Below, one piece after another: positions 6,126 through 38,157 of a stretch of DNA of 38,157 nt. Each line of letters starts with the position of its first letter. The first letter of the stretch is position 1. The stretch lies in IMG/VR virus record IMGVR_UViG_3300012032_000003, positions 1 to 38,157 of that record; one strand, written 5' to 3'. Under the pieces are notes generated by a model. That model did no database searches and had not been told where the DNA came from. It worked only from the letters and a program-made list of their open reading frames with translations. A program made the position numbers and the translations under genes. The DNA comes from a virus.

Positions 6126-6368
6126 ATGATACTAAGAGAACTTTTCTACTTTGACAAAGACACAGTAGAGCCTGAGACCGATAACAGTTACGAGCCGGAG
6201 CACGATAAGACTCCGGCTAAGCCGTCTGACACAAGAAAGACACGACTAACACTTGGTCAACTTAACCGCATAAGAAAATCAAACGAGTATCACAACCAAC
6301 AGAAAGAAAAAGATCTAGAACACGTTAGACAGATGTACGGAGCGCCTCCGGCAGAAGAAGGACTATAA
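6126..6368 (+). CDS. Conserved-type small protein of the gp20-gp21 interval, unknown function
   Basis: An 80-residue hydrophilic protein, about 2:1 charged to apolar. The N-terminal LRELFYFD segment is followed by an acidic/Pro linker (residues 14-35) and then a basic amphipathic helical half starting at TRLTLGQLNRIRK (about 39-51) and ending in VRQMYGAPP. I do not recognise a named family. Small proteins of this shape occur after the portal gene in T4-like phages, and T4 gp67 happens to be the same length, but the composition is not that of acidic gp67. Its place in the head operon suggests a prohead core or assembly role. Translation probably depends on coupling to gene 20, since no clear ribosome site is present. 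The stop codon directly abuts the next ATG. Confidence 0.65.
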   Translation: MILRELFYFDKDTVEPETDNSYEPEHDKTPAKPSDTRKTRLTLGQLNRIRKSNEYHNQQKEKDLEHVRQMYGAPPAEEGL

Positions 6369-6959: not shown

Positions 6960-6981
6960 CTCAAAATGGCTCATTTTGAGT
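6959..6981 (+). terminator. Hairpin, probable weak terminator
   Basis: ACTCAAAATG and CATTTTGAGT form a perfect 10-bp stem around a GCT loop, overlapping the last base of the preceding stop codon. The following sequence (TGTCTTTATATGC, then five Ts further on) is only moderately T-rich, so termination may be partial. It separates the portal subgroup from the gp67-21-22-23 subgroup. Confidence 0.55.
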
Positions 6982-7009
6982 GTCTTTATATGCTGTTTTT
7001 ATCATTGTT

Positions 7010-7018
7010 GTTAAATAC
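7010..7018 (+). promoter_or_regulatory. Weak candidate late promoter for the core/capsid subgroup
   Basis: GTTAAATAC resembles the late core with T in place of A at its second position. It sits between the 6959-6981 hairpin and the gp67-like gene, 49 nt before its ATG. A similar GTTAAATAG lies before the gene at 24073. Position is good, sequence match is modest. Confidence 0.3.
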
Positions 7019-7066
7019 AAATGACAGCCTTACCATAGGTAAATTTTATTAACAGGAGATACAAAC

Positions 7067-17496: not shown

Positions 17497-20400
17497 ATGT
17501 CAACTAGAATTTTACACAAAAGAAACTCAACAGCAAATACGCCTCCACAAGCAGGTGACTTGTCAGCAGGCGAGTTAGCATTTAACACAGCCGACGGTAA
17601 GCTGTATCTCAAGCGCGACGACAACGTTATTATAGATGTTTCACAGTCTATCTTCCAACGCGACACAAAGTTTACTGTAGTAGACGATGGTGTAAACCCT
17701 GGAACAATCACAGGTGAAATTGACGGTACCCAGGTGCTACAGGTAGACGCTGCTGGTGTAACACTAGACGGTGGACTAGAGATTAACTCTGCAGAAACAC
17801 TATTTTTTAACGATGCTGACAATAGTGAGTATGTAGGAGTAAGAGTTCCCGACACCGTTGGCTCTAGCTATATCATTAAGCTGCCTGACACACTACCACA
17901 GGATAAAAAGTCTTTATTGTCGATTGATAATAAAGGTAACACCCTATGGGACGAAGTTAACCCATTTGCCGCCTTTACAATCTATGTAAGCGAAGAGTAT
18001 GGCGACGATACAGGCGACGGTTTCCAAAATCCTGTTAAGACAGTTAAGCGTGGTGCACAGTTAGCAGCAGAGATGTCGAAGGTTCCTACTACACCTGCTA
18101 CTGATAGTCAGCTAGCAGTTAAAAGGCTGGTACCAGACAACATTGACTTCTTGATCGAAGAAACTATAGGCTTTGTCAACACAACATATCCTGGATTGAC
18201 ATATACAGAAAACCTATGGCGTAGTACATTTAGGTTGGCAATCGAAGCTGTTCGATATGATAACTTTCTTAGTGGTAACTCGGCCACAGTAGCCGCTGGC
18301 GAGACAGCAAACACAGACATTACTGATGAAACAGAGTTTGTTGCGGCATTAGAACATCTACGAGATATTACAGTCAACGTAATTAATAATCAACCTCCTG
18401 CAACAAGCTACCAGGGACTCATTGAACAAGAGACTGTAGAACAACTAGACGGAAGTGCAGAAAACTCTAACATTATCGCAGGTTACAATACGATTAGAGA
18501 CATCATTTCTAGTGACACTTCACCAGCAGTAGTTGAAGCAGACTTTAAAGTTGTTCCAGTAACAGTTAGTCTTGCGGGAGGTGAGTTTAATGTAGACAAT
18601 CCTGTGATAATTTCTGACAACGTAACAGTAAGCGGTTCGAGCTCTCGTGGTGTTGTACTACGCCCATTAAATGCTAACGCTGACATGTTCAGAGTGCGTA
18701 ACGCAAGTGGCATATTAAACCTAACCTTGCGTGATGCAATAGACGCCTCGGGCAATCCTACAGGCAAGTTCCAGTGGGCGGTAGCATTTGACGATCCATC
18801 TGATCCTACTGTTAGTCGAGTAGACTACTTTGGTCTGCTTAACACTAAACCAGTAATTAGTGTTCCACCACTATTTCAAAACGTACTCCTTGTTTCGTTC
18901 TTAGGAGCAAACGGTATTGAAGTAGACGGGTCAAAAGTTGATAGACCTGCTAGCTTTCCTGCACCAGAAGTACAGCGACAGATTTTCCGAGGCTTTGGTT
19001 TTGCGTTTTCAACCTTTGGTGGCATAGGTGTACTAGCGTCCAATAACGGTAATGCCCAGATCAGTTCATGCACGTTCTCGTTCTGTTCAAACGGCATATA
19101 CGCACGCTCGGGCGGTTTCGTCGAAGCTACAAACTCAGGTACTGCATTTGGTATCTACGGTCTGCGTGCTTCAGGATATCGTCAATCGGCTCTCTTAGAT
19201 GACACAGGTATTGTTGTTGACACAGGACTTACAGCAGAAGGTACTCAGTTTATGCGTCTAGTGGGACCAAGAAGATTCCCATTAGAAGAATATGTTATTA
19301 GAATAAGGGATGTCGGAACAGAAGCCGACATAACAAATTCTTTTAAGACGCCGACTACTGTTAACTCATTTAACGCGGCAACAGCCGTAAATGCATCAAC
19401 TAACGTGTTTACAATTACAAGTCACGGGTACTCCGACGGTGATGCTGTGGTATACTCACCTGATGGTAACACACCAATCGACGGACTAGAAGAGGGTGTT
19501 TCGTATTACGTTGACGCTGTTACAACAGATACATTCGAGCTTTACAACGACGAGGGTCTACAGTTTGCTGTTAATATAACAGCAGCGTCAACAGGCACAC
19601 ACGAGTTCTCAAGTGACACTGAAGAGTTCTTTATTGAGAGTCGTAGAGACCTACACGCAGACTACCAAGTAGTTGTTACCGAGCCAGGTTCATTTGCTTT
19701 CCAACCAGGTGACTTGATACTAGGCACAACCGTCGGCCAGACAAACACTGCATACGTATATTCATACAACGACAGCACAGATACGTTAATACTATCAAAC
19801 GAAGAAACAGCTGGTAGTAAAGTTTTGTTCGATAACACCAGTGTTATTACAGACATCGCTGGGTCAAGCGTTAGTATTAACGTTAATTCTGCTAATTCGT
19901 TAAGCGAGTATAGAACAGCAACAGTAATTGTTGACTCAACTGTGCCAGCAAGTACGGTTCAAAATATCAGCAACGCCGAAGGTCAGATTATTAGACTACA
20001 TAGGCCAAGTACTGTTGTAGCAAGTTCACATGTATGGGAATATGCAGGCGCTGGCACAGACTTTGATGCGCTAGACGAAACACTGTGCTGTAGTGAAGGA
20101 ACTACCTTCCAGTACAGACAAGACTTGCCAGGCCGCGTTTATCCGACAGGCTCTGACGAACGAGGCGACTGGAAACTCAACGGAATAATGGTAGCCGAAC
20201 CAAGAGGCAACAAAGTTAAGTTCAACAGTATAGTTGAGATGGAAGACCTGCGAGTAGTTGAACTATCTCTTAACGATGTAACAGTTACTGAGATATCAAC
20301 TGACGTTGGCCTAGGTGACAACGAGCCGTTCGGTGCGCAGGACACGAGACTTTCAACTCAGCGAGCTGTTAGATCATTTGCAGCCAACAGACTAGGCAAC

Positions 20401-23400
20401 GTACTCGATAAAGCTGTATCGTCATCTGCGGTTCCTAGGGCACTAGTACAGCTAAACGCTAATGGTCAGATTAACGCTGGCCTACTTCCTCCGGGACGAG
20501 GTATCTCGACTATTCCTGTCGCCGGATTTGAATCTCGCTTAGATGTCAGCAGAGAAATTCCTGCAACATCTCTACTAGTTGGTGACCAGGTTGCTGAGAC
20601 TTACGACCAACAAGTGTTAGACCTAACAGGCACTGTGACAGTCGCTAAAGGCAGTGAAATTATACAGCAAAACACAGGAGCAACAGGTTACGTTAAAGAA
20701 GACGTTAGTTCAGGAACTTCTGTAATTTTAGTAGGTCCACTAAGTGGCACATTTAACACAACTGACGAACTAGAAGACGACGGTTCTGCCCTAGGAGCAA
20801 ACAGTGTTCCTACTGTAGTTGGCACAGTTGACACTATCACAGACAACTACTTCTTGACTACAGACACAGATAGCCAGTTCTTGCAGTTGAGTACATCAGG
20901 CACATATGACTTTACTGGGGTTACAGCCGTAGAAAGTGCACGTTCAGGCGGCACTGGTGATATTACAAGCGGTCCTGTTGAAGGCGTGCTCACAACTGTC
21001 AACAACCTCGTTGCAGGCAGCGGCTATACTCCGTTAAGTGGTACTGAGACATACGAGCTTGTAAGTTTAACAGGTGGCACTGGCACAACCGCTCACGCAG
21101 ATATTACTGTTACTGACGGTGCAGTAGTTGATGTAGACATTAGAAGAGGTGGTGAAGACTACGTAGTCGGCGATACTCTAAGTGCTAACGCAGCAGACAT
21201 CGGCGGCACAGGTTCTAGCTTTAGTGTTGACGTTGACTCTGTTCAGGTACGTTTGTTTGTAGACCTAACAGGCAATCGTATACAGTTTAATGCAAACTCG
21301 CAGGTTCCTGACTACATTGAAGACGCAAATGCTGACGTGAATACTATTGCTGACCTAACAGTAGCAAACGTACAGAACTTTGATGCAGAAGACACAGGTG
21401 CAGCAGGTGACGTAAGTTACTTGTCAGAAACAATCACAATTACTGGACACCCATACGCAAGTGGTGATCCTGTTGAGTATGATGACGGCGGCAACGGCAT
21501 AATTGGCAACTTAACAGTTGGCAACTCTTATTGGGTTAAGGTATTAGACGCAAACACTATTGAATTATACGCAGACTATGCATTGTCTAGTGGTAGCCAG
21601 ATATTATTTGGAACCCAGTCAACTGGCGTGCACAGCTTAACTAGATACACAGTCGACACGAACATTAACGAATTTGTCATTATAAATCACGGATACAATA
21701 CAGGTGATCCAATTCAGATTGAAGGCAGTGACTTGCCAGATCCTTTGGAAGATGGCGAATTCTTTTATGTAGGTAGTGTAAGGCCTGACTCGTTTACAGT
21801 CCACGTGTCTCGCACAGATGCGTTAGCTAGTATATCAGGTGCTAGTATAAGTCCTGTTGTGTTCTCTACCACAGGCACAGGTTCAGCAACATTTACTACT
21901 CAAAACGTTGAAGTAGTCGGAGCAGTAAATACGTCTTCAAGAGATATCGCAAACTGGAATGTCATATCTCAGCAGACTATTGATGCTTCTAACATTGTGA
22001 GCGGTACAGTAGCTACTCAGAGACTTGCTTCGGGTACAGCTAACGACACAACATTCTTGCGAGGCGACCAATCCTGGGCACGAGCAGTTCAGACAATGAC
22101 AACTCCGTCAACTGATCCTATTCGTTTAACAGGCACGTTCTTTACTGACACTGGCACTGACTTCTATTACGATTCTGTGCAAGTAGCAGTGAATTCAGTT
22201 CAGCCTGGAACAGACCCAACATACTCGACTCTAGGTGTTGCGCAGTTTAATAAGAACCAATTTAACATCAGTGCTGGTCAGGTGTCTATCCTTAACAATA
22301 CTATTAACGCTGGCTTCTTAAATGGTAATGACGGTTCTTATTACCTTGATCCTGCTAACATATCAGGCACAGTGCAGACCGGAATAGGCGGCACTGGTCT
22401 AACAACATATACTACAGGCGACTTGCTCTACAGTGGTGCGTCTAACAGTTTATCTCAGTTAGCGATTGGCGCTCCGAACACCGTCCTTACAAGTAACGGT
22501 AGTATCCCGGCCTGGCGTTCAAGTCTTACTCTTGCAAGCACCCTAACTGTTGCAGGCATAACAGAAGTTACCAACGCAACTCAGTCGTCTAGTACAACGT
22601 CAGGCGCATTGCAGGTTGACGGCGGCGCTGGCATAGTTAAGAACTTAAATGTTGGCGGAGACACTGACATCGCAGGCGGATTAACAGTTAACGGTAATAC
22701 AACCTTTAACTCACCTTCATTCAACTCAACTGGCCTTACTATTGTGGTAGCAGATGGATCAGCAAATGCTGCCGCGGCAGACGGCGCCGGCTTAGTTGTT
22801 GACTTAGGGTCAAGCGGTACGTCAAGTTTCTTGTACGATAGCAGTGACAATGTAATGAACCTTAACAAAGGGTTAACACTTGACAACGGATTGTCAGGTG
22901 ATACAATCTTTACAATTCGCGCGGACTCAGACGATAATGCTGAAGGCGATCACCCGAGCATACGTCTAAAGCAAGACGGTGACAATGTTGACTACAGAAT
23001 TGGCTTGGGCGTTAACGACGGTGATACTGTAGGGGCAACTGCTAACGCATTAGTAATTAATGCATTGTCAGGTGTTGCCGCAGACTCATTAAAGTTCTCG
23101 CCAGATAATGGTGTAACAGTTAACACAATATTCCATGACGGTTATCATCCAAACGCAGACACACTTACAACAGCAAGAAATATCAGTGTAAGTGGTGCAG
23201 TTACAGGTAGCGTTAGTTTTGATGGCTCAGGCAATGTTGATATTGCAACAACAGCAACCAGTGACCCTACCTTAACACTAGCAGGTGACTTGAGTGGTTC
23301 AGCAACGTTTACTAATCTAGGCAACGCTACACTGACTGCCGCAGTAGCAGATGACAGTCACAACCACACAACACTAAGCAACGTTACAGCAATTAACTTT

Positions 23401-24009
23401 GCGGCCCAGACCACTGACGCAGCTTCAATATCAACTATTATTGATGTTGATACTACTTACTTAGACTTTAATTTAGGTAACGACAATAACCAAGAAGAGT
23501 TCCGTTGGAGATTCTCTCCGGATGGGTCTTCGTCGTACACTGCAATGCGTCTTGTGCCACAGACTGATACTCAATCTTCGCTTGAAGTTTCAGGCAACGT
23601 TAGAAGTGAATCTATTGTACTGCAAGACCTAGTAGTTAAGACTGTGGCAACAGCGTCGACAACCACTACTGGGCAGTTTACTTTGATAGAGTTCCCAGCA
23701 GTAGACTATCAAAGTGCAGAAGTGTTCATTCAGGCAGTCGAAGGTAACTTTGTCCATGTATCGAAGCTGATTATTGCACACAACGGAACTACAGCTTCTG
23801 CAACTGAGTTCGGTTCAATTAAAACCGACGGTGTATTGTTTACAACAGATGTTGATATCAACAGTGGTAATGTAAGAGTATTAGTCACATCAGCACAGGT
23901 AGATTTAACTGCGTACACAGCTAACTACACGCTAGTTTCTAGATCACCGGCAACTACAATAGCAGGCGGTGCGCCACTAGTAGTTTCAGACTTTAGCCCT
24001 AACAGTTAA
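17497..24009 (+). CDS. Giant fibre/adhesin with beta-helix-like region
   Basis: A 2170-residue structural protein. Residues 1-50 form an attachment-type N-terminus (RILHKRNSTANTPPQAGDLS, then NTADGKLYLKRDDNVI). An IYVSEEYGDDTGDGFQNPVK block at about 162-181 leads into a right-handed beta-helix-like region (about 350-570). Three copies of a roughly 65-residue domain (H-G/P-Y..GD.V.Y...GL..G..YYV....DTFELY) lie near nt 19420-19615, 21440-21650 and 21685-21880. A GGTGLTTYTTGDLLYSGASN knob motif is at about 1631-1650. A hybrid of the two module types found in the following fibre genes covers about 1890-1957 and includes one DDSHNH (His 1955 and 1957). The C-terminal 180 residues form a distinct domain. 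It probably makes a trimeric tail fibre or spike; no catalytic residues can be assigned. Confidence 0.75.
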   Translation: MSTRILHKRNSTANTPPQAGDLSAGELAFNTADGKLYLKRDDNVIIDVSQSIFQRDTKFTVVDDGVNPGTITGEIDGTQVLQVDAAGVTLDGGLEINSAETLFFNDADNSEYVGVRVPDTVGSSYIIKLPDTLPQDKKSLLSIDNKGNTLWDEVNPFAAFTIYVSEEYGDDTGDGFQNPVKTVKRGAQLAAEMSKVPTTPATDSQLAVKRLVPDNIDFLIEETIGFVNTTYPGLTYTENLWRSTFRLAIEAVRYDNFLSGNSATVAAGETANTDITDETEFVAALEHLRDITVNVINNQPPATSYQGLIEQETVEQLDGSAENSNIIAGYNTIRDIISSDTSPAVVEADFKVVPVTVSLAGGEFNVDNPVIISDNVTVSGSSSRGVVLRPLNANADMFRVRNASGILNLTLRDAIDASGNPTGKFQWAVAFDDPSDPTVSRVDYFGLLNTKPVISVPPLFQNVLLVSFLGANGIEVDGSKVDRPASFPAPEVQRQIFRGFGFAFSTFGGIGVLASNNGNAQISSCTFSFCSNGIYARSGGFVEATNSGTAFGIYGLRASGYRQSALLDDTGIVVDTGLTAEGTQFMRLVGPRRFPLEEYVIRIRDVGTEADITNSFKTPTTVNSFNAATAVNASTNVFTITSHGYSDGDAVVYSPDGNTPIDGLEEGVSYYVDAVTTDTFELYNDEGLQFAVNITAASTGTHEFSSDTEEFFIESRRDLHADYQVVVTEPGSFAFQPGDLILGTTVGQTNTAYVYSYNDSTDTLILSNEETAGSKVLFDNTSVITDIAGSSVSINVNSANSLSEYRTATVIVDSTVPASTVQNISNAEGQIIRLHRPSTVVASSHVWEYAGAGTDFDALDETLCCSEGTTFQYRQDLPGRVYPTGSDERGDWKLNGIMVAEPRGNKVKFNSIVEMEDLRVVELSLNDVTVTEISTDVGLGDNEPFGAQDTRLSTQRAVRSFAANRLGNVLDKAVSSSAVPRALVQLNANGQINAGLLPPGRGISTIPVAGFESRLDVSREIPATSLLVGDQVAETYDQQVLDLTGTVTVAKGSEIIQQNTGATGYVKEDVSSGTSVILVGPLSGTFNTTDELEDDGSALGANSVPTVVGTVDTITDNYFLTTDTDSQFLQLSTSGTYDFTGVTAVESARSGGTGDITSGPVEGVLTTVNNLVAGSGYTPLSGTETYELVSLTGGTGTTAHADITVTDGAVVDVDIRRGGEDYVVGDTLSANAADIGGTGSSFSVDVDSVQVRLFVDLTGNRIQFNANSQVPDYIEDANADVNTIADLTVANVQNFDAEDTGAAGDVSYLSETITITGHPYASGDPVEYDDGGNGIIGNLTVGNSYWVKVLDANTIELYADYALSSGSQILFGTQSTGVHSLTRYTVDTNINEFVIINHGYNTGDPIQIEGSDLPDPLEDGEFFYVGSVRPDSFTVHVSRTDALASISGASISPVVFSTTGTGSATFTTQNVEVVGAVNTSSRDIANWNVISQQTIDASNIVSGTVATQRLASGTANDTTFLRGDQSWARAVQTMTTPSTDPIRLTGTFFTDTGTDFYYDSVQVAVNSVQPGTDPTYSTLGVAQFNKNQFNISAGQVSILNNTINAGFLNGNDGSYYLDPANISGTVQTGIGGTGLTTYTTGDLLYSGASNSLSQLAIGAPNTVLTSNGSIPAWRSSLTLASTLTVAGITEVTNATQSSSTTSGALQVDGGAGIVKNLNVGGDTDIAGGLTVNGNTTFNSPSFNSTGLTIVVADGSANAAAADGAGLVVDLGSSGTSSFLYDSSDNVMNLNKGLTLDNGLSGDTIFTIRADSDDNAEGDHPSIRLKQDGDNVDYRIGLGVNDGDTVGATANALVINALSGVAADSLKFSPDNGVTVNTIFHDGYHPNADTLTTARNISVSGAVTGSVSFDGSGNVDIATTATSDPTLTLAGDLSGSATFTNLGNATLTAAVADDSHNHTTLSNVTAINFAAQTTDAASISTIIDVDTTYLDFNLGNDNNQEEFRWRFSPDGSSSYTAMRLVPQTDTQSSLEVSGNVRSESIVLQDLVVKTVATASTTTTGQFTLIEFPAVDYQSAEVFIQAVEGNFVHVSKLIIAHNGTTASATEFGSIKTDGVLFTTDVDINSGNVRVLVTSAQVDLTAYTANYTLVSRSPATTIAGGAPLVVSDFSPNS

Positions 24010-27000: not shown

Positions 27001-29199
27001 GGCGATGTTACTGGCGATGTTACCGGAAACGCTGACACAGCATCTGCTTGGGAAACTGCTAGAACTGTTACGTTGTCTGGAGCAGTTACAGGGTCTGCAA
27101 GCGTCGACGGTGCAAGTAACGTAAACATAGCAACCACAGCTACAAGTGATCCTACACTAACGCTAGACGGTGACGTAAGTGGTACAGCTACGTTTACTAA
27201 CTTAGGCGACGCAACCTTAACAGTCGCAGTAGATGGTGGTAATGCCGAGACTCTTGACAACTTAGACTCTGCCCAGTTCTTGCGCTCAGACACAGACACA
27301 ATATTTGATTCTAACTCAGACACACAAAGGTTATACATCACTGCGGAAGGCAATACAGACGAATCACTGTCATTCTCAGTTAGTGGTAATACTGCGTTTA
27401 TACGAAGAGAAGAAATAGGATCTACAGCAAACCTACAGTTTGATTTAACAGGCTCACTAGGTACTGGAAACATTGTATTTGAACACGATGGCACCGATAC
27501 ACAAATTGTTATTGACTCTAATCGTGTGCTTACGGAAGCAGACTTATTAGCAATCAGTGACGCAGATACTTTGGACGGTGAAGAAGGTACATATTATCTT
27601 GACTTCAATAACTTTACAAGTGCACCTAGTCCGACCCTAACACTGAGTGGCGACGCCGCAGGCACTGCTACGTTTACAGAACTAGGTAACACAACTCTAA
27701 ACGTTTCAATTGATGGCGGTAATGCAGATACACTTGATAACTTAGATTCTACTCAGTTCTTGCGCTCTGACCAAAGTGATACGCTGGAAGGTAGTTTAAC
27801 ACTGCAAGCAACAGGTCCAGAAGTATTTCTGGACAACACAACTGCTGGTGGTGAATCTTTAAAAATTAAAACAACCACCACAGAAAGTTTTATTAAGTTC
27901 ACTAATACCGGTAGCTTTGGTATACAACCTGTGTCAGATGTTGCAACAGATGTAACCGCTCCGGTTGCGTTTGTTATGGCCGGCAACGGCGACATTAGTA
28001 TGTCTGGTGACGTATCCGTTGGCGGCATTATCTCAGGCGACGGTAGCGGCTTGTCAAACCTTGACTTCAACGACATCACAGCTAATATACCAGATCCTAC
28101 TCTAACACTAGATGGTGACGTAAGTGGTACAGCTACCTTTACTAACCTAGGTAACACAACACTTTCTGTTAGTGTTGATGGCGGCAACGCTGACACTGTT
28201 GACAATCTAAGTGCTACTGACTTTACGCTAGACAGAGTAACGTTCTACGGTAACAACACAGTTAACCCGATCAACGTAGGCACAGTAACAACATCAGGTG
28301 CTTTAAGAGGACCAGCAACGTTTATAGTTGACCCTGTGCCGTATGATAACATCGGTGGTACTGTTATCGTTAGAGGTAACCTACAGGTCGAAGGTACAAC
28401 TACAACAATAGAATCGACTGCGGTTACAATCGAAGATGTCAACATTGAATTAGCAAATGGCGCAGCGAATGCGAGTGAAGCAAACGGTGCAGGTATTACG
28501 GCCAACTTAGGCACAGACGGTAATGCGACAATCACATATGACTCGCTTACTGACACCTGGAACATGAACAAAGATCTGGTCGCAAGCAACTTTGTCGGTG
28601 ACCTAACAGGTAATGCAGATACAGCAACACGTTGGGCTGTAACTAGAAATATCAGCGTAAGTGGTGCAGTAACAGGCACAGCGACAATTGACGGTACAGG
28701 CGACGTTGATATTACTACAACAGCAACCAGTGATCCAACACTAACACTAGACGGTGACGTAAGTGGTACAGCTACATTTACTAACCTAGGTGATGCAACA
28801 TTAACGGTTAGCGTTGATGGCGGTAATGCAGATACACTTGATAACTTAAATTCGACTCAGTTTGTTAGAAGTGATGTCGACGATACGTTAGATGGTACGT
28901 ATACAGTAACAGGTGCACTAACGGTCGACGGTGACTTGTCTGTTTACGGCAATACCATAAACTTTATTTCAGGCACAAGCGCACGCATCGAAGTAACTGA
29001 TGTCGATACAGCAAACACTGGATCGGAATTTGTATTCTACGGTGACGACACTGAAGGCAACGCAAAGCTAAAAGCCAACGAGTATGAAGGCGACACTGTT
29101 AGAACATACAAAACAAGTTACACAAATACAGCAAGAACAGAAGGCGTAGACGTAGAGTACAACGACAATTCTAAGTCACTAGACTACAACTTCTTCTAA
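24073..29199 (+). CDS. Giant repetitive tail fibre protein
   Basis: A 1708-residue protein built almost entirely of beta-rich repeats. The basic block, beginning DPTLTLxGDxSGTATFTNLG and continuing to DGGNADT, occurs nine times (for example nt 24205, 24844, 25516, 26185, 26455, 27148, 28093). Five of these lead into a longer module of about 213-231 residues with LRGPA...IDP (nt 24411, 25081, 25752, 26690, 28298), then a NLQVDGTTTTINST strand pair and a DRW.FDR.VEA segment. A 90-codon insert (27274-27543) recurs in the next giant gene. The last 90 residues (from about FISGTSARIEVTDVD) form a different, non-repeat C-terminal domain. It probably forms a long trimeric shaft. AAGGAG precedes the ATG. 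It is likely co-transcribed with its neighbours. Confidence 0.78.
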   Translation: MANDRNFEVKNGLLTTQTVTAGAFVGDGSQLTNLDYAKITSNLPDPILTLAGDASGTATFTDLGNATLTVAIDGGNADTFVNLVPADFTLDRVTDNGNTTTNAISVGNITAGGYLRGPASLTIDPSPYGDIGGTVVIRGNLQVDGVTTTVNSTNISVDDVNIELAAGAENAGAANGAGLTVDLGTDGATAITYDSSVNRWTFDRDVEADTFIGDLTGNATSADQWSTARTITLTGAVTGNTSIDGSGNVTLATTATSDPTLTLAGDASGTATFTDLGNATLTVAIDGGNADTFVNLVPTDFTLDFVTDNGASTSNNLAIGDLTAGEITVDNIISSGFLRGPSTFTIDPVAYLDNTGTVDIAGNLEVGGATTTINSTDVTIAAANIELASGNVSNATAADGAGITVDLGTDGTTSAIYDAGTDRWVFDRVVEADSFVGAIAGTAATADQWTTARTLTLTGSVTGSVSIDGSQDVTLNTSPTNDPTLTINGDAAGSATFTNLGDATLTLAVDGGNADTLDNLDSTDFTLDFVAANGNTTSSPITVGNITADDASFDNITTTGYLRGPANFVIDPAAFGDDTGTVVIAGNLQIDGTTTTINSTNVSVEDLQIELASGATNPAAADTAGLLVNLGSSTVASITYESANDLWASNKPIVATTFAGDLIGNADTASTLETARNVSLSGAVTGVASFDGSSNITIATTATSDPTLTLSGDASGTATFTNLGDATLSVSIDGGNADTFATLVPTDFDLARVTNSGNTTTNNISVGTVTATDFIGDGSQVSNINFANISSNLPDPTLTLDGDATGTATFTDLGDVTLNVTVDGGNAETLDGIDSTGFTLDRVTGNGSTTTNAISVGNITGSTIDVGQITTSGNLRGPATFIIDPSPFADIAGTVVIRGDLEVEGTTTTINSTTISVDDVNLTLANGATNAGAADGAGITVDLGTNGTTAFTYVASLDRWDLDRELQAGRFIGDVTGDVTGDVTGNADTASAWETARTVTLSGAVTGSASVDGASNVNIATTATSDPTLTLDGDVSGTATFTNLGDATLTVAVDGGNAETLDNLDSAQFLRSDTDTIFDSNSDTQRLYITAEGNTDESLSFSVSGNTAFIRREEIGSTANLQFDLTGSLGTGNIVFEHDGTDTQIVIDSNRVLTEADLLAISDADTLDGEEGTYYLDFNNFTSAPSPTLTLSGDAAGTATFTELGNTTLNVSIDGGNADTLDNLDSTQFLRSDQSDTLEGSLTLQATGPEVFLDNTTAGGESLKIKTTTTESFIKFTNTGSFGIQPVSDVATDVTAPVAFVMAGNGDISMSGDVSVGGIISGDGSGLSNLDFNDITANIPDPTLTLDGDVSGTATFTNLGNTTLSVSVDGGNADTVDNLSATDFTLDRVTFYGNNTVNPINVGTVTTSGALRGPATFIVDPVPYDNIGGTVIVRGNLQVEGTTTTIESTAVTIEDVNIELANGAANASEANGAGITANLGTDGNATITYDSLTDTWNMNKDLVASNFVGDLTGNADTATRWAVTRNISVSGAVTGTATIDGTGDVDITTTATSDPTLTLDGDVSGTATFTNLGDATLTVSVDGGNADTLDNLNSTQFVRSDVDDTLDGTYTVTGALTVDGDLSVYGNTINFISGTSARIEVTDVDTANTGSEFVFYGDDTEGNAKLKANEYEGDTVRTYKTSYTNTARTEGVDVEYNDNSKSLDYNFF
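26989..27024 (+). repeat. 12-bp tandem repeat, three copies
   Basis: GGCGATGTTACT is repeated three times head to tail (26989-27000, 27001-27012, and 27013-27024 with a final C), encoding Gly-Asp-Val-Thr three times. Other modules in the same protein have a single GDLTG at this position, so this is a local expansion that keeps the frame. Confidence 0.9.
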
Positions 29200-29209
29200 A
29201 GGAAATTAA

Positions 29210-31120
29210 ATGGGCTTAGTAGCATACTATCCGTTAAATGGCAATTCGCAGGACTATATTACTGAAGATTTTGCAACTGTAGAAAACGTTATTTGGACAG
29301 ACGGTAAAGTTGGAGACTGTGGTAGTTTTAACGGTACAACCTCACAGATTATTATTCCCGACGAACCTAAATACAAGTCTAGGTCAGAAATAAGTGCGGC
29401 AGCTTGGGTTTATTCTACACGGAACTTAGCAGCTCGTCAAGTGGTATTAATGGTCGGCCGCGACATGAGTTCAGGATACCTCTTACTAACTGACGACGGT
29501 ACAACATTTAGAGCTAGAATTAACACCTCAGGTGGTCAGGTGGAAGCGTCAGCAACAGTGACCCTAAACACATGGAACCACTTTGCGTTTTCGTATTCAT
29601 ACGAAACTGGTCTGCGTCTATACTTGAACGGAGCATTGATTAGCGAACAGCCAGCAAACGGTACTATCACTTATCCTGAGATATTTGGCGACGGTAATTC
29701 TATAGGTGCTCACGGAGGTCAGTATTACTTCGAAGGGTTTATTGACGAGGTCGAACTATACAATCATGTGCTTTCCGCCAAGGAAGTGCAAAACATTTAT
29801 AGAGCACTTTATTTTTCTGCTAGCCTGCGTTATTCATCTAACTCAAACGTCAAAGAAGATACAATAACCGAGGTTGGCACAGTTACCTTTAACAATGGCT
29901 TTATAGGAACAAGCTCGGGCGGCATCGAATACAACAACCTAGATGCCAGAATAACCGAGGCAACGGTTAGCATATACGCAAGACTAGATGCAGTTGGGTT
30001 AAATCAAGTACTTGATACTTCTCTGCCAAGAGGTATTGTATTAAAGTGGCAGGACAATTCATCTAGTGCACTAGTTGGCGGCTTTGATGGAAGTTTCGTA
30101 ACTGTCCCTATAACCTATACACTAGGACAAGAAATACATATTGTAATGACCTATGACGGGTCAACTCAAAAGTTTTTTATTGACGGACAAAAAGTTCAAG
30201 AAAACGCTAAGACTGGTGCATTCAATTTATCTACGTTATATGTTGGCAAGTATTTTGCTAATTCAGATTACGACTTTGAAGGCAAGCTAAGAGATGCACA
30301 GGTATTTCAAAGGTTGTTCTCAGAAACAGAAGTGTATGAGTTCTCTAGAAACGCTATGTCCATTCACAATACTGGTATTATGCAACCTAAGTATTTGATC
30401 GAAACAGGTAACGAACTAGACTTTCTTTCTGTTAGATATGATAGTATACAAATAGGCGAGTTTAGCGAGATAGGCGCTGGAAGAGAAATGGTAAACTGGT
30501 TACCGTTTAATGACTCGAATGTAGACAAAACAGGCATAGGTACAGATGCAACGTTAAATAACGGAGCATTTGTTGATGTAGACGGCTTGTTTGTGGACGG
30601 TACAGACGATTATGCAACTATAAGTCAACCAGACTTAGATTTTAGTTCTCATCATTGGACTGTTTCGTTTCTTATATATCCGCTAGCAATCGACGGAACG
30701 TTTGTAGTGTCACCAAACTCTGCAGGAGTAGATCACGGATTTAGGTTCGGCGGCTCTGGCAATATCTCGATGCTGTACGCTGAGTCAGCAGATACTAACA
30801 CTAGAGCAGTAACAGGTAGCTTGCCGTTAAACGAATGGACACACGTTGTTGGACAGATTGATGAAAACTTGACAGCACGACTCTTTATAAATGGTGAACT
30901 AGTAGACGAAGAAACAAATACTATTCCTATCGCATACTGGACAGATGGCTGGAGTATTGGCCAAAGAGCAAACGCTACTTTCTACAGTAATTTTAGAATG
31001 AAAAACTTTAAAGTCTTTGATTCGGTATTAACTGTACAAGAAATCGGTGCTGAATATAGAATGGGCAAAGCTTCGGTAAATAAGAACACTGCATACGCAA
31101 AAGAAATAATAGAAGGTTAA
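29210..31120 (+). CDS. Triple LamG-like adhesin
   Basis: A 636-residue protein with three concanavalin A/LamG-type jelly-roll domains: about 1-197 (LVAYYPLNGNSQD ... GDCGSFNGTTSQI ... WNHFAFSY ... LRLYLNGALISE ... IDEVELYNHVLS), about 200-378 (EIHIVMTYDGSTQKFFIDGQ ... LRDAQVFQRLFS) and about 430-620 (WLPFNDS ... FVDGTDDYATI ... WTHVVGQI ... ARLFINGELVDE ... FKVFDSVLT). Each shows the characteristic strand ending in (N/D)G and the final strand before a helix. LamG folds usually bind glycans, so this may be a receptor-binding tip or side protein working with the adjacent fibres. The start follows AAAGGAAA, 10 bp after the previous stop. There are no membrane segments or signal peptide, as expected for a virion protein. 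Confidence 0.78.
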   Translation: MGLVAYYPLNGNSQDYITEDFATVENVIWTDGKVGDCGSFNGTTSQIIIPDEPKYKSRSEISAAAWVYSTRNLAARQVVLMVGRDMSSGYLLLTDDGTTFRARINTSGGQVEASATVTLNTWNHFAFSYSYETGLRLYLNGALISEQPANGTITYPEIFGDGNSIGAHGGQYYFEGFIDEVELYNHVLSAKEVQNIYRALYFSASLRYSSNSNVKEDTITEVGTVTFNNGFIGTSSGGIEYNNLDARITEATVSIYARLDAVGLNQVLDTSLPRGIVLKWQDNSSSALVGGFDGSFVTVPITYTLGQEIHIVMTYDGSTQKFFIDGQKVQENAKTGAFNLSTLYVGKYFANSDYDFEGKLRDAQVFQRLFSETEVYEFSRNAMSIHNTGIMQPKYLIETGNELDFLSVRYDSIQIGEFSEIGAGREMVNWLPFNDSNVDKTGIGTDATLNNGAFVDVDGLFVDGTDDYATISQPDLDFSSHHWTVSFLIYPLAIDGTFVVSPNSAGVDHGFRFGGSGNISMLYAESADTNTRAVTGSLPLNEWTHVVGQIDENLTARLFINGELVDEETNTIPIAYWTDGWSIGQRANATFYSNFRMKNFKVFDSVLTVQEIGAEYRMGKASVNKNTAYAKEIIEG

Positions 31121-31129
31121 AAACACTAA

Positions 31130-34100
31130 ATGGCTAGATTAAACGATTCGATTACGTTTGGCAATCACTCAATAACAGGTGACGTAGACGTCGCTGGACA
31201 GCTTATAGTTGCTGGTTCGCAAGTTATCACCTCATCAACTGTAGCAACTACCGCTGACGCACTAGAAACAGCTAGGACGATTACTCTAGGTGGTGACTTA
31301 TCTGGCAGTGTGTCATTCGATGGCTCGCAGGATGTAACCATTACTGCTACGGTTGCAGACGATAGTCACAACCACATAATTGCTAACGTAGACGGGTTAC
31401 AAGCAGCTCTTAGCAACAAACTAAGCCTAACAGGCAAGGCAGCAGATGCTGAATTATTAGATGGCCAAGAAGGTGCATTCTACCAAAATGCTTCAAACTT
31501 AAATGCCGGTACAATCAGTGACGCTCGTCTTCCAGGTACTATTACAAGTGACGTTACAGGCAACGCTGCAACAGCTTCGCAGTGGCTAACATCTCGCACT
31601 ATTACACTTGGCGGCGATCTAAGCGGCTCGGCGGGAATTGACGGTAGCTCTAACGTAACGCTGAGTGCCACTGTAGCAGACGACAGTCACGACCACATAA
31701 TTGCCAACGTGGACGGACTTCAGACTGCCCTTGACGGCAAAGTAGGAGTTAACGCAGTCGCAGCCGACTCAGACTTGCTTGACGGCCGAGAGGGCGTATT
31801 TTATCAAAACGCAACAAATCTTATCTCTGGCACTGTTAACGATGCACGATTGCCTAACACAATCACGAGTGACATCACAGGCAACGCTGCTACTGCAACG
31901 GCATTAGCAACGGCAAGAACTATTTCTCTAAGTGGTGACGTGTCTGGCGCCGTTAGCTTTGACGGAACAGCGAACGCAGCAATAACAGTAACAGTAGCCG
32001 ACGATAGTCACAACCACATAATTGCTAACGTAGACGGGTTACAAGACGCACTTGATACAAAACTCAGTAACAGTGGTACAGCAGCAAACGCTACACTACT
32101 TGACAACTTGGATTCTACACAGTTCCTGCGTTCAGACGCTGAAGCTATATTTGATTCTGCATTAGACACACAAAGACTATACATCACATCTGAAGGTGCT
32201 ACTGATGAGTCGTTGTCGTTCTCAGTCAACGGTAGTACTGCGTTTATAAGAAGAGAAGAGCTGGGAACTTCGGCAAACCTACAGTTTGATTTAACAGGAT
32301 CTTTAGGAACAGGCAACATTGTATTTGTGCACGACGGTACCGATACACGTATTATAATCGACAACAACCGTGTTCTTACTGAAGCAGACGAAGGCGCAGG
32401 CAACGGATTAGACAGTGACACGTTAGATAGCGAGGAAGGTACCTATTACCTAGACTTTAACAACTTCACTAATTTGCCAGATCCGACTATTACTCTAGGT
32501 GGCGACGCGACTGGTGATATAACACTAACCGATCTAAACAGCGGAACACTAGACGTAACGGTTGTTAGTGGTAATGCTACAACACTAAACAGTCAACCGG
32601 GCGCGTTTTACCAAAACGCAACTAACTTGATTTCAGGTACAATCAGCGACTCGAGACTACCAGGCACTATTTCAAGCGACATCACAGGTAATGCTAACAC
32701 AGCAACCTCTGCACTAGCATGGACAACTGCTAGAACTATTAGCTTGTCAGGCGCTGTTACTGGCAGTGTATCAGTAGACGGATCACAAAACGTTACAATA
32801 GCTGCAACAGCAACCAGCGACCCAACTCTAACTCTTGCAGGTGATGCAACAGGTACAGCTACATTTACTAACCTAGGCAACGCAACACTAACAGTCGCAG
32901 TTGATGGTGGCAACGCTGATACACTTGGTGGGCAAGCTGGTACATTCTATCAAGATGCATCAAACCTTACAACAGGTACTATTGATGATCTATTGTTACC
33001 AACTACTATATCAAGTGATATTACTGGCAACGCAGCAACCGCAACCGCACTTAAAACCGCAAGAACGTTTACACTTAGTGGTGACATCACAGGCAGCGTA
33101 TCGTTTGACGGAACCTCAAACGTTACTATATCAACAGTAATAGCAGACGATAGCCACAGCCATATAATTGCAAACATTGATGGACTACAGGCAGCACTTG
33201 ATGCAAAACTAGATGCGAGTGCACAGTCGTCGGATGCCGACACACTAGACGGAGAACAAGGAACTTATTATCTTGACTTTGTTAACTTTACAAACGTACC
33301 GGATCCGACTATCACAGTTACAGGTGACGCTACAGGAGTAGTTACACTTACAGACCTAGCAAGCGGAGGTTTGGTTCTTACAGTCGACGGTGGTAATGCT
33401 GACACCGTTGACAACCTAAACGCAACAGACTTTGACCTAGACACTGTTACTGGACACGGAGCAACTACTACAAACAACATTAGCGTAGGCGATGTTACAG
33501 CAGGCGCGCTAGATGTAGGAAACATCTTAACTAGTGGTTACTTGAGAGGACCTGCTACATTTGTCATCGACCCAAGTTTGTACGACGACCCGTCAGGTAC
33601 CGTTATAATTAAAGGTAACCTGCAGGTTGACGGTACAACAACTACAGTTGATTCGGCTTCGATATTAACTAGTGACTTAACGATTACTGTAGCAACTAAC
33701 GCTGCAAACGCAGGCGCAGCAGACGGCGCTGGTCTAATAGCCGACTTAGGTACAGATGGCCAGGCCGAAATGTTGTATGTAGAATCTTCTAATAGATGGA
33801 CGTTTAACACAGACCTAGAAGCTGCGAATTTTGTTGGCGACTTAACAGGCAACGCTGTTTCAGCAGACGCTCTATCAACAGCAAGAACAATTGCACTAGG
33901 CGGCGACGTTACTGGTTCAGCTAGCTTCGATGGCAGCTCTAACATCACAATTACTGCAACTGTTGCAGACGACAGTCACAACCATACAATTGCAAACGTA
34001 GACGGTCTACAAACTGCATTAAACAGCAAGTTAGGCACAGCGGGTACAGCAGCGAACTCTCAGCTACTAGACAGTTTGGACTCTACACAATTTATAAGAA

Positions 34101-37100
34101 GCGACGTATCTGACATTGTTACGGGAGTGTTAAGTTTTCAGAACAACGTATTCATTGACGGAGCCCAAACAGTATTCTTTGACGACGGCGCTTCGCACAT
34201 TGTATTCAGAGACAGTGGCACAGCAGAGTGGGAGATTGAAAGTAATGTTTCTGGAGACTTGAATTTTGTCAATTCCGATGCAACTGGAGATCTTACACTC
34301 GACGGTAACAGAATACTTACTACTAACGATCTAACAAACCTTGACGATGCAGAAACACTCGACGGTAATAACAGCGCGTTTTATCGCAACGCATCGAATC
34401 TAAATGCTGGCACAATTAGTGATGCACTATTACCAGGAACGATTACAAGTAACGTTACAGGCAACGCTGGCTCAGCAGACGCACTATCAACGGCAAGAGA
34501 TGTTTCACTTGGTGGTGATGTAACTGGTTCAGCTACCTTTGACGGCAGTGCAAACATTACTATTACAGCAACGGTTGCCGACGACAGCCACAATCACATA
34601 ATTGCCAACGTAGACGGATTGCAAGCTGCTCTTGACGACAAGCTAGCTACAACAGGAATTGCAGCAGATTCAGAATTACTTGATGGCCAAGACGGTCTGT
34701 ATTACCGCAATGCAACTAACTTGATTTCAGGTACAATCAGCGACTTGAGACTACCAGGCACTATTTCAAGCGACATCACAGGTAACGCGGCTTCTGCTAA
34801 TGTGCTTTCTACAGCACGTTCGATTACACTTGGTGGTGATGTAACAGGCGGAGCATTATTTGACGGGAGCGCAAACCTTACAATTACCGCAACTGTTGCA
34901 GACGATAGTCACAACCACATTATAAGTAACATCGACGGATTGCAATCTGCTCTTGATGCAAAACTAGGTGATAACGACGTGGCAGCAGACGCAGAATTAC
35001 TTGACGGCCGAGAAGGTGCGTATTACCAAAACGCTTCAAACTTAAATGCCGGTACCATTAGCGATGCACGCCTACCGAACTCTATAACAAGTGACGTTAC
35101 AGGCAACGCTGCAACTGCAACAGCGTTAGCAACCACAAGATCAATTTCGCTGTCAGGTGATGCATCCGGTACAGCAAACTTTGACGGTACATCAAATGCT
35201 GTTATTTCTGTTAGCATTGCAGACGATAGTCACAACCACATTATAAGTAACATCGACGGATTGCAATCTGCTCTTGATGCAAAACTAGATGCAAGTGCTC
35301 AGTCATCAGACGCAGACACACTAGACGGTATAAACAGCACACAGTTTGTACGAACAGATGTTAATAACGAAATAACCGCTAAGCACAGTGTTACTGGCAT
35401 AGGCGAGTTGATGGCATTTGGCGACAGCCAAAACAACACTACCGATGCATGGATCAGAATAGGTAACGGTGATGACGTTTCTGACTTCAGCTGGTTAATA
35501 AACTATCAAGGTTCAACGGATACTACTGACGGCAATGAATTACAGTTTGTTAGCCTAAACGAAGGAACCGGTCTTCAGCTGGATCACTTGGGCAACATCG
35601 AACCTGTCGGCGGCGCAGTATTTGGTGGCGCAGGCAACAACCTAACAGGTGTAAACGCAGCAACACTTAACGGCAACACCAGCAGCTTTTTCCAAAACGC
35701 TGACAACTTGACGTCTGGAGTAATTGCTGACGCACGTCTACCAAACACTATTTCAAGCGATATCACAGGTAACGCTGCATCAGCAGACACCCTGTCAACT
35801 GCTCGTTCGATTGCACTAAGTGGCGACGTTACTGGCAGCGCATTGTTCGACGGTGGTTCAAGCATTACTATTTCTGCAACTGTTGCAGACGATAGTCACA
35901 GCCATATAATCGCAAACGTAGATGGGCTACAGTCTGCATTAGATAATAAACTCGACACTGGTGCTACAGCAGCAGACTCGGATTTACTTGACGGGCAGGA
36001 CAGTCTTTTCTACAGAGATGCCTCAAACCTAAACGCCGGTACTGTTGCTGATGCACGTCTACCTGCTAGTATATCAAGCGACATTACTGGCAATGCTGCA
36101 ACAGCAACCGAACTAGAAACAGCTAGAACAATTGCACTAGGTGGTGACGTATCAGGCAGTGCATCGTTTGACGGTACTGCAAACGTTACAATTACAGCAA
36201 CAGTAGCAGACGACAGCCACAATCACGTTATATCTAATGTTGACGGCCTGCAGACAGCACTTAACGGTAAGCTAGACATTTCTGCAAAAGCAGCAGATGC
36301 CGATTTACTTGACGGTAATGACAGTCTGTTCTACACAAATGCAAGTAATTTAGCTTCCGGCACAATAAGCGATCTATTATTGCCAGGCACTATTTCAAGC
36401 GATATTACAGGCAACGCTACAACAGCAGATGAATTATCAACCGCAAGAACAATTGAACTAACAGGCGACGTCACCGGTACTGTAAGTTTCGACGGTAGTT
36501 CAAACGTAGCAATTGCAACAACTGTTGTAAACGGTGGCGGCGCAGCGACTCAGGATCCAACTCTAACATTAGCAGGTGATGCAAGTGGATCGGCTACATT
36601 TACTGACTTGTCAGACGCAACTCTAACAGTTACAGTTGATGGCGGCAATGCTGATACGCTTGACAACCTAAACTCAACGCAGTTCACACTTGATAGAGTA
36701 ACAGACAACGGATCTTCAACTACTAACGCTATATCAACAGGCACGATCACTACATCAGGCGAGTTGAGAGGTCCGGCTAACTTTGTAATTGATCCAGCCG
36801 CGATAGGTAACAACACTGGTACTGTTGTTATCAAAGGTGACCTGCAGGTTGACGGTACTTCAACAATTATTAACTCAACCTCGTTAGCAATTGATGACTT
36901 GAACATACTAATAGCCAACGGTGCTGCTGATGCTGCATCAGCCAACGGCGCAGGTATAACTGTTGATCTAGGTACCTCAGGTACTACAAACATCGCATAC
37001 GATTCGAGTGTAAATAGATGGACATTTGATCGTAACGTTGAAGCTAACACGTTTATTGGTAACTTGACAGGCAGTGTTACAGGTAATGCAAGTTCAGCAA

Positions 37101-38157
37101 GCACTCTACAAACAGCAAGAAGTATTTCACTAGGCGGCGATCTAAGTGGCAGCACATCGTTTGACGGTAGTTCGAATGTTACAATAAACGCTGTTGTACA
37201 AGATGACAGTCACAATCACATCATTAGTAACATTGACGGATTGCAATCAGAGCTAAATGGCAAGTTGAGTTCTACTGGCACTGCCGTAGATTCAGCCCTG
37301 CTGGACGGCCAAGACGGCTCATTCTATAGAGATGCATCAAATCTAAACACAGGAACTATCAGTGACGCAAGACTGCCTGGCACAATCACAAGTAACATCA
37401 CAGGTAATGCTGCATCAGCCAATCAGTGGAGCACAGCAAGAACTATTAGTTTGTCGGGTGCTGTTAACGGTAGTACGTCAATAGACGGTTCTGGCAACGT
37501 GTCTATCGCAACTACAGCCACAAGTGATCCCACACTAACTCTAAGTGGTGATGCAAGTGGTTCGGCTACGTTTACAAACCTAGGCAATGCTACACTATTA
37601 GTGAATGTTAGTCAAGCAGCTAACGCCGGTACACTAGACGGAATTAACTCAACGCAGTTCCTAAGAAGCGACCAGAGTGACACAATGACCGGCGACTTAA
37701 CAATCGCCAAAAACAATCCTTGGATTGAACTAGACAGCCCAGGCAGCGGAGCAACAGGCGACGAGCAGGGCGCAGGCATATCAATAGGTGAGAGTGGTTA
37801 CAAAGGTACAACAGCACTACACTTGACTTATACAGGTGACGGGGTGGGCCATATTGGCATGGGCGCAGTAACTGACAGTGTGCCTCAGTTTGAAGTAATG
37901 CGTATGCAGTACCAAAGCAACAATGTTGAGTTCTTAGGTACTATTACAGGTAATGGCAGCGGGTTAACAAACTTGCCGTTTGGTAGCTTAACCGGGCTGC
38001 CGGATCCTACTCTTACACTAACTGGTGACGTGAGTGGTTCAGCTACATTCACAAACCTAGGCAATACATCGTTGTCGGTGAGCGTTAACAACGCAAACAA
38101 TCTAGACGGCCTTAACTCAACTGAGTTCTTACGCAGTAATGCTAGTGATACGTTCAC
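31130..38157 (+). CDS. Giant repetitive tail fibre protein with HxH array, 3' end outside window
   Basis: An open frame of 2342 complete codons with no stop before the window end, so the protein is longer. The start ATG at 31130 follows GAAGG 13 nt upstream and begins MARLNDSITFGNHSITGDV. It consists of 107-residue modules. Each has a GGDVSGSxxFDGSxNVTITA strand block, then DDSHNH, NVDGLQxALxxKL, a LLDGQ..FY.NASNL segment, TISDARLPG and SSDITGNA. Eleven DDSH(N/D/S)H motifs occur, with first His at residues 80, 187, 294, 676, 950, 1154, 1261, 1368, 1590, 1697 and 2028. Longer modules of the type in the gene at 24073 are interspersed, with LRGPA at nt 33537 and 36759. It probably forms a very long trimeric fibre. 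I traced the frame line by line and saw no frameshift. Confidence 0.8.
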   Translation, partial: MARLNDSITFGNHSITGDVDVAGQLIVAGSQVITSSTVATTADALETARTITLGGDLSGSVSFDGSQDVTITATVADDSHNHIIANVDGLQAALSNKLSLTGKAADAELLDGQEGAFYQNASNLNAGTISDARLPGTITSDVTGNAATASQWLTSRTITLGGDLSGSAGIDGSSNVTLSATVADDSHDHIIANVDGLQTALDGKVGVNAVAADSDLLDGREGVFYQNATNLISGTVNDARLPNTITSDITGNAATATALATARTISLSGDVSGAVSFDGTANAAITVTVADDSHNHIIANVDGLQDALDTKLSNSGTAANATLLDNLDSTQFLRSDAEAIFDSALDTQRLYITSEGATDESLSFSVNGSTAFIRREELGTSANLQFDLTGSLGTGNIVFVHDGTDTRIIIDNNRVLTEADEGAGNGLDSDTLDSEEGTYYLDFNNFTNLPDPTITLGGDATGDITLTDLNSGTLDVTVVSGNATTLNSQPGAFYQNATNLISGTISDSRLPGTISSDITGNANTATSALAWTTARTISLSGAVTGSVSVDGSQNVTIAATATSDPTLTLAGDATGTATFTNLGNATLTVAVDGGNADTLGGQAGTFYQDASNLTTGTIDDLLLPTTISSDITGNAATATALKTARTFTLSGDITGSVSFDGTSNVTISTVIADDSHSHIIANIDGLQAALDAKLDASAQSSDADTLDGEQGTYYLDFVNFTNVPDPTITVTGDATGVVTLTDLASGGLVLTVDGGNADTVDNLNATDFDLDTVTGHGATTTNNISVGDVTAGALDVGNILTSGYLRGPATFVIDPSLYDDPSGTVIIKGNLQVDGTTTTVDSASILTSDLTITVATNAANAGAADGAGLIADLGTDGQAEMLYVESSNRWTFNTDLEAANFVGDLTGNAVSADALSTARTIALGGDVTGSASFDGSSNITITATVADDSHNHTIANVDGLQTALNSKLGTAGTAANSQLLDSLDSTQFIRSDVSDIVTGVLSFQNNVFIDGAQTVFFDDGASHIVFRDSGTAEWEIESNVSGDLNFVNSDATGDLTLDGNRILTTNDLTNLDDAETLDGNNSAFYRNASNLNAGTISDALLPGTITSNVTGNAGSADALSTARDVSLGGDVTGSATFDGSANITITATVADDSHNHIIANVDGLQAALDDKLATTGIAADSELLDGQDGLYYRNATNLISGTISDLRLPGTISSDITGNAASANVLSTARSITLGGDVTGGALFDGSANLTITATVADDSHNHIISNIDGLQSALDAKLGDNDVAADAELLDGREGAYYQNASNLNAGTISDARLPNSITSDVTGNAATATALATTRSISLSGDASGTANFDGTSNAVISVSIADDSHNHIISNIDGLQSALDAKLDASAQSSDADTLDGINSTQFVRTDVNNEITAKHSVTGIGELMAFGDSQNNTTDAWIRIGNGDDVSDFSWLINYQGSTDTTDGNELQFVSLNEGTGLQLDHLGNIEPVGGAVFGGAGNNLTGVNAATLNGNTSSFFQNADNLTSGVIADARLPNTISSDITGNAASADTLSTARSIALSGDVTGSALFDGGSSITISATVADDSHSHIIANVDGLQSALDNKLDTGATAADSDLLDGQDSLFYRDASNLNAGTVADARLPASISSDITGNAATATELETARTIALGGDVSGSASFDGTANVTITATVADDSHNHVISNVDGLQTALNGKLDISAKAADADLLDGNDSLFYTNASNLASGTISDLLLPGTISSDITGNATTADELSTARTIELTGDVTGTVSFDGSSNVAIATTVVNGGGAATQDPTLTLAGDASGSATFTDLSDATLTVTVDGGNADTLDNLNSTQFTLDRVTDNGSSTTNAISTGTITTSGELRGPANFVIDPAAIGNNTGTVVIKGDLQVDGTSTIINSTSLAIDDLNILIANGAADAASANGAGITVDLGTSGTTNIAYDSSVNRWTFDRNVEANTFIGNLTGSVTGNASSASTLQTARSISLGGDLSGSTSFDGSSNVTINAVVQDDSHNHIISNIDGLQSELNGKLSSTGTAVDSALLDGQDGSFYRDASNLNTGTISDARLPGTITSNITGNAASANQWSTARTISLSGAVNGSTSIDGSGNVSIATTATSDPTLTLSGDASGSATFTNLGNATLLVNVSQAANAGTLDGINSTQFLRSDQSDTMTGDLTIAKNNPWIELDSPGSGATGDEQGAGISIGESGYKGTTALHLTYTGDGVGHIGMGAVTDSVPQFEVMRMQYQSNNVEFLGTITGNGSGLTNLPFGSLTGLPDPTLTLTGDVSGSATFTNLGNTSLSVSVNNANNLDGLNSTEFLRSNASDTF
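34896..34967 (+). repeat. 72-bp perfect direct repeat, copy 1
   Basis: This 72-nt stretch over the DDSHNH motif and the following NIDGLQSALDAKL segment is identical to 35217-35288, 321 bp downstream. Most other module copies differ at many synonymous sites, so this pair is likely a recent duplication or gene conversion. Confidence 0.85.
35217..35288 (+). repeat. 72-bp perfect direct repeat, copy 2
   Basis: Identical in sequence to 34896-34967. The units upstream of the two copies differ (the FDGSANLTITATV type versus the FDGTSNAVISVSI type), so only part of the module was homogenised. Confidence 0.85.

What the first reader, a model, noticed from the sequence alone, without database searches (positions are those of the whole stretch)
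31367..37219. Periodic HxH array: a possible metal-studded fibre shaft
Eleven in-frame DDSH-x-H motifs lie in one unfinished fibre gene, many exactly 107 residues apart, and one more lies in the neighbouring giant gene (His 1955/1957 of the protein starting at 17497). In T4 gp37, HxH motifs from three chains together hold iron ions along the fibre axis, and gp12 has a comparable metal site. If these proteins are trimers, each motif could hold one metal ion, giving at least eleven per fibre, more than the seven in the T4 gp37 tip. In a marine phage this would bear on the published Ferrojan horse idea, that phage fibres carry iron. What is seen is motifs and spacing; metal binding is inferred.
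Basis: partly seen in the sequence, partly recalled or inferred. Interest (0 to 1): 0.75.

Follow-up and report, generated by a model that had tools for sequence, protein, structure and literature searches.

The report
Phage fibre with repeated histidine clamps
A giant tail-fibre gene from a T4-like jumbo phage carries eleven copies of a known histidine pair that probably holds one metal ion between the fibre's three strands; the array is real and long, but the motif is widespread and there is no sign that it evolved to carry iron in the sea.

Summary
The 3'-cut ORF 31130-38155 has eleven DDSHxH motifs at the stated positions; five of ten intervals are exactly 107 residues. 22 of its 30 His lie in these motifs, and shuffling gives 0.36 on average. 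One more motif is in the neighbouring 2170-aa protein. The motif belongs to a known repeat, Pfam PF12789 (PTR), and follows a beta module also found in phage L Dec. A profile of the motif matches a solved phage fibre chain (9d93, gp4, E 8e-8). In searches that did not use the histidines, both are present in 74/75 and 30/30 distinct helix instances, so the pair is under strong constraint. The deeper prediction places strands before the pair and a helix after it. Best reading: a trimeric HxH metal clamp at a beta-to-helix joint, of the kind solved in T4 gp37 and R-pyocins. Metal binding was not tested. The Ferrojan part is not supported: the unit also occurs in gut Clostridia and an E. coli phage, and the neighbouring fibre is built from the same beta modules without any HxH. 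Long arrays are not unique: another viral contig encodes a 3755-aa fibre with 16 motifs. New member of a known kind.

The parts
31130..38155 (+). fibre gene, at least 2342 aa, cut by the end of the contig; 14 beta modules, 11 of them followed by DDSHxH + GLQ helix
31226..32188 (+). modules 1-3, tandem at exactly 107 aa
31367..31375 (+). HxH 1 (His80/82)
31688..31696 (+). HxH 2 (His187/189)
32009..32017 (+). HxH 3 (His294/296)
33155..33163 (+). HxH 4 (His676/678)
33977..33985 (+). HxH 5 (His950/952)
34448..35410 (+). modules 6-8, tandem at exactly 107 aa; module 6 was the query of the deeper structure prediction
34589..34597 (+). HxH 6 (His1154/1156)
34910..34918 (+). HxH 7 (His1261/1263)
35231..35239 (+). 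HxH 8 (His1368/1370)
35897..35905 (+). HxH 9 (His1590/1592)
36218..36226 (+). HxH 10 (His1697/1699)
37211..37219 (+). HxH 11 (His2028/2030)
17497..24009 (+). 2170-aa fibre/structural protein with one DDSHNH near its C-terminus
23359..23367 (+). HxH 12 (His1955/1957 of the 17497 protein), not followed by a GLQ helix
24073..29199 (+). 1708-aa sister fibre: five of the same beta modules, each followed by T(S/N)DPTLT, with no HxH; internal control that the shaft can be built without it

Best explanation
The ORF is the shaft of a long, presumably homotrimeric tail fibre of a T4-like jumbo myovirus. It is assembled from exchangeable cassettes: a beta module (TARTIxLxGDVxGSxxFDGSxNVTITATV), a joint (ADDSHxH), a short amphipathic helix (IxNVDGLQxALDxKL) and a linker often ending in GTISDARLP. 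At each joint the six His of three chains form a ring on the axis that holds one metal ion, most likely Fe(II) by analogy. The metal clamps the three chains in register where the shaft passes from intertwined beta strands to a three-helix bundle. The purpose is folding, register and stiffness of a very long fibre. Shown here: motifs, spacing, conservation, cassette structure and the predicted strand-HxH-helix order. Inferred: trimer, His pointing inward, metal bound, identity of the metal, and function.
For: All 11 modules match PTR PF12789, in the module shown over the HxH-GLQ segment. Searches without the His: both His in 74/75 distinct instances in loci found by the helix part and 30/30 in loci found by the beta part; 12/12 in loci from bacterial genomes, whose query included the motif. 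After a beta module, 143/303 distinct sequences have HxH, 140 of them at the same offset. The deeper AF2 model (pLDDT 71.5; strands 42-46, 50-56, 65-68 in blocks with means above 90) puts His 73/75 in a non-helical stretch after the strands and before helix 83-91, which suits an i, i+2 pair facing one side. Solved relatives: phage L Dec for the beta part (E 7e-11) and a tail collar fibre gp4 with SHTHSIANVTGLQDALDEKL, nine chains in 9d93 (E 8e-8). HxH iron sites are solved in R1/R2 pyocin fibres, T4 gp37, P2 gpV and phi92, with Zn in T4 gp12; a folding/register and stiffness role is proposed there (PMC6116203).
Against: No trimer could be modelled. The shallow AF2 model places HxH inside the first turn of the helix (47-70), where i, i+2 would not face the same way, and confidence at the joint in the deeper model is only about 69. 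Fold search against the PDB gave nothing usable. A profile of the motif does not reach T4 gp37 or pyocin fibres, so the metal site is carried over from structures that are not demonstrable homologues. Whether a metal is modelled in 9d93 could not be read.
Confidence: 0.72

Rival explanations
1. Ferrojan horse: the fibre is studded with iron so that the phage is taken for an iron complex and docks on siderophore or TonB-dependent receptors, or so that phages carry iron in the sea.
For: Published hypothesis (Bonnain 2016, cited in PMC10892097) and a six-HxH Alteromonas phage fibre read this way (PMC11705849). Eleven or more sites per fibre would hold more iron than the T4 tip.
Against: The same HxH-GLQ unit is in a sheep-colon Clostridia MAG (L260) and an Aeromonadaceae MAG, and related HxH in Clostridium (L255) and a wastewater E. 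coli phage (QDNSHNH, L273). Sites would be buried along the shaft, not at a tip (inference). Vi01-like phages infected TonB and FeoB mutants as well as wild type (PMC10892097). Marine origin is not proven. HxH is replaced by other elements after the same beta module in about half of cases.
Confidence: 0.06
2. Metal-free joint: the DDSHxH segment is a conserved turn and helix cap, and the His pack or hydrogen-bond across the trimer without metal, or sense pH.
For: Asp, Ser and Asn around the His are also strongly conserved (D 93%, S 95%, N 92%), as for a capping box. One model begins the helix at the HxH. No metal has been shown for PTR in anything I could read.
Against: Both His are kept together at 99% while the residue between them varies (N, A, S, T, D), which is what a two-His ligand set predicts; solved fibres with the same HxH spacing hold metal (PMC6116203).
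Confidence: 0.18
3. The motif is only a recombination landmark: conserved joints between modules that make fibre genes easy to shuffle, with no selection on the His themselves.
For: The joint sits between exchangeable cassettes and several different elements can follow either side.
Against: Nucleotides between modules differ (mean identity 65%, third bases differ at about half of identical residues) while the amino acids of the joint are kept. Selection is therefore on protein.
Confidence: 0.03

Closest known systems
Phage tail repeat-like family PTR (Pfam PF12789)
   Same: All 11 modules match it; whole protein 107 bits against a cut-off of 27.
   Different: Number of copies (11 or more) and partly tandem 107-aa spacing.
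Tail collar fibre gp4 in PDB 9d93 (mycobacteriophage Bxb1)
   Same: SHTHSIANVTGLQDALDEKL and a second HDHVAADVTDL; nine chains in the solved tail.
   Different: 356 aa, two HxH units, no TARTI beta module in front.
T4 gp37 receptor-binding tip and R1/R2 pyocin fibres (HxH iron sites)
   Same: HxH, trimeric fibre, site from six His (PMC6116203).
   Different: No sequence match by profile; there the motifs sit in the tip or in one shaft domain, here each precedes a predicted helix and they recur along the known length.
Alteromonas phage R22Y gp12 (six putative HxH iron sites)
   Same: Several HxH along a marine phage fibre, iron binding predicted (PMC11705849).
   Different: Shorter (676 aa) and differently spaced; iron was docked, not measured.
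Fibre of contig IMGVR_UViG_3300010389_000023 (L268)
   Same: DDSHNHIISNVDGLQ units, 16 HxH in one complete ORF of about 3755 aa.
   Different: Mostly a shorter beta part (FGGDVSGTYNAIVVADDSHNH) and irregular spacing.
Phage L decoration protein Dec (6e3c)
   Same: Same beta module (TARTITLTGAVTGSASFDGSANVTI; E 7e-11).
   Different: Ends before the HxH joint; a head decoration protein.

Membership tests
PTR PF12789 | score above Pfam's gathering cut-off | tested here: met
   107.2 bits against 27 for the whole protein; single modules match 11 of 11 at E up to 0.1, the one shown in full scoring below the cut-off
HxH trimeric metal-site fibres (T4 gp37 / pyocin type) | HxH pair conserved as a unit | tested here: met
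   74/75 and 30/30 without using the His in the query
HxH trimeric metal-site fibres (T4 gp37 / pyocin type) | homotrimer with His on the axis | not testable with these tools
   no multimer prediction offered; the solved relative of the HxH-GLQ part has nine chains in 9d93
HxH trimeric metal-site fibres (T4 gp37 / pyocin type) | bound metal | not testable with these tools
   needs ICP-MS or a structure
T4 gp37 tip family | sequence relationship to gp37 | tested here: not met
   profiles A1, A2 and A5 do not find gp37 in the PDB set at E up to 10
Ferrojan horse fibres | iron used for receptor docking | not tested
   needs host and virion; indirect evidence is against
T4-like jumbo myovirus | gp23-like capsid, portal and protease gene block | tested here: met
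   PHROG portal, protease and capsid; capsid 72% to Vibrio phage 2.275 and 68% to CBB/GAP32, same head gene order

The most novel reading that the evidence does not exclude
Some jumbo phages build fibres with eleven to sixteen or more iron atoms each on the axis, so that a virion with six such fibres would carry some 66 to 96 or more iron atoms in its tail, possibly enough to matter for trace-metal budgets.
Probability: 0.25. Interest if true: 0.55.

Novelty: new member of a known kind. Interest (0 to 1): 0.33.

Why it matters
If each joint holds a metal, these are among the most metal-rich phage fibres described, and PTR, a common domain named only as a repeat, gains a testable role: a metal clamp at beta-to-helix joints. 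It would also mean that HxH counts in marine fibres reflect fibre architecture rather than an iron-piracy strategy, which weakens a line of evidence used for the Ferrojan horse idea.

Tried and rejected
AF2 of one module with its 10 sister modules was poor (pLDDT 61); with 93 rows it was better, in the beta part above all. Foldseek of that model against the PDB gave no match with E below 2.8. The Bxb1 structure paper was not held, so metal in 9d93 could not be checked. Close relatives with the same fibre were sought through its N-terminus (one weak locus) and through the capsid (80 loci): of 14 longer contigs of that clade seven gave only weak matches, mostly to the beta part, and no HxH-GLQ array was seen in the loci fetched, but these are fragments. 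The plasmid collection had no match. Recent duplication as a cause of the His conservation was rejected.

Full report
What is there. ORF 31130-38155 (at least 2342 aa) runs to the end of the record; the window is the whole virus record, 38157 bases, so the gene is cut. Eleven DDSHxH motifs are at the stated places. Five of ten intervals are exactly 107 aa; 22 of 30 His lie in the motifs; shuffles give 0.36 on average, at most 3. A twelfth is at residues 1955/1957 of the 2170-aa protein.

Anatomy. The protein is a mosaic of cassettes. Fourteen beta modules (TARTIxLxGDVxGSxxFDGSxNVTITATV) were found; eleven are followed by a DDSHxH joint and a GLQ segment, two by TSDPTLTL and one by a related VNGGGAATQDPTLTL. 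The sister fibre 24073-29199 has five of the same beta modules, all followed by T(S/N)DPTLT and none by HxH, and shares diverged blocks with the array gene (64-82% nt). A shaft of this type therefore does not need HxH. The IxNVDGLQxALDxKL segment has a 3-4 hydrophobic pattern and is at least partly helical in both predictions. In the deeper model the strands are confident, HxH is in the stretch between the last strand and the helix, and confidence there is modest; in the shallow model the helix already begins at the HxH.

Conservation. To avoid circularity I searched viral contigs with the beta part alone and the helix part alone. GLQ-helix instances in those loci have both His in 30/30 and 74/75 distinct cases; loci from bacterial genomes, found with the whole module, have 12/12. 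The residue between the His varies. Conversely, of 303 distinct sequences after a beta module, 143 have HxH, 140 at the same offset; the rest have other elements. HxH is thus optional for the beta module but close to obligatory for the GLQ helix. It can also precede other elements (HTHDGRYYTE and others). Within the window, modules share only 65% of their nucleotides on average and their third bases differ at about half of the identical residues, yet all 22 His are kept.

Known relatives. The unit is Pfam PTR. A profile of it finds a solved tail collar fibre, gp4 of 9d93 (other papers identify 9D93 as mycobacteriophage Bxb1). The beta part is that of phage L Dec. HxH iron sites are solved in R1/R2 pyocin fibres, T4 gp37, P2 gpV and phi92, and a Zn site in T4 gp12; the authors of the pyocin study suggest folding reference points and a balance of stiffness and flexibility (PMC6116203). 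Sequence alone does not link the window to T4 gp37. Fibres with several HxH are published: seven in a Burkholderia phage (PMC8174754), six in Alteromonas phage R22Y (PMC11705849). A complete viral fibre ORF of about 3755 aa with 16 HxH is in L268, so eleven is high but not extreme.

The phage. Portal, head protease and gp23-like capsid genes, capsid 72% identical to Vibrio phage 2.275 and 68% to CBB and GAP32, and conserved head gene order make it a fragment of a T4-like jumbo myovirus. Its 2170-aa protein has relatives only in Vibrio, Synechococcus/cyanophage, Prochlorococcus and Roseobacter phages of the collection, so an aquatic source is likely but not shown. In 14 contigs of the capsid clade no HxH-GLQ array was found, so the array looks accessory, with the reservation that these are fragments.

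Mechanism. I take each joint to be a trimeric metal clamp at a beta-to-helix transition. The rival that the joint holds no metal cannot be excluded with these tools (0.18). The Ferrojan reading gets 0.06: the unit is not marine-specific, it is modular and by inference buried, and the one test found in the library was negative (PMC10892097).

Verdict. Real, orderly and longer than the published cases I found, but a new member of a known kind; the iron-carrying idea remains untested.

Noticed in passing
11129-12697 +: A 522-aa homing/HNH endonuclease (phrog_3339, E 2.5e-115) sits directly behind the major capsid gene.
   Followed up: no
29210-31120 +: A 636-aa protein with three Laminin_G_3/ConA-like lectin matches lies between the two long fibre genes; possible sugar-binding adhesin.
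   Followed up: partly
24073-29199 and 31130-38155 +: Adjacent fibre genes share diverged blocks (64-82% nt), including a non-repeat insert (DTQRLYIT...NRVLTEAD) present once in each: module exchange between neighbours.
   Followed up: partly
1577-4345 +: 922-aa protein between baseplate hub and portal genes without any PHROG match at E 1e-4.
   Followed up: no
G002 (contig of L284), about 6365-7192 -: An open frame of 8783 aa with weak matches to the same beta module in a relative of this phage: an exceptionally long open frame.
   Followed up: no
L268 (ORF of about 3755 aa): The 16-HxH fibre ends in a sequence that looks like an S74-type intramolecular chaperone (SDITLKENIE...GVIAQEVEEVLPEAV).
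   Followed up: no
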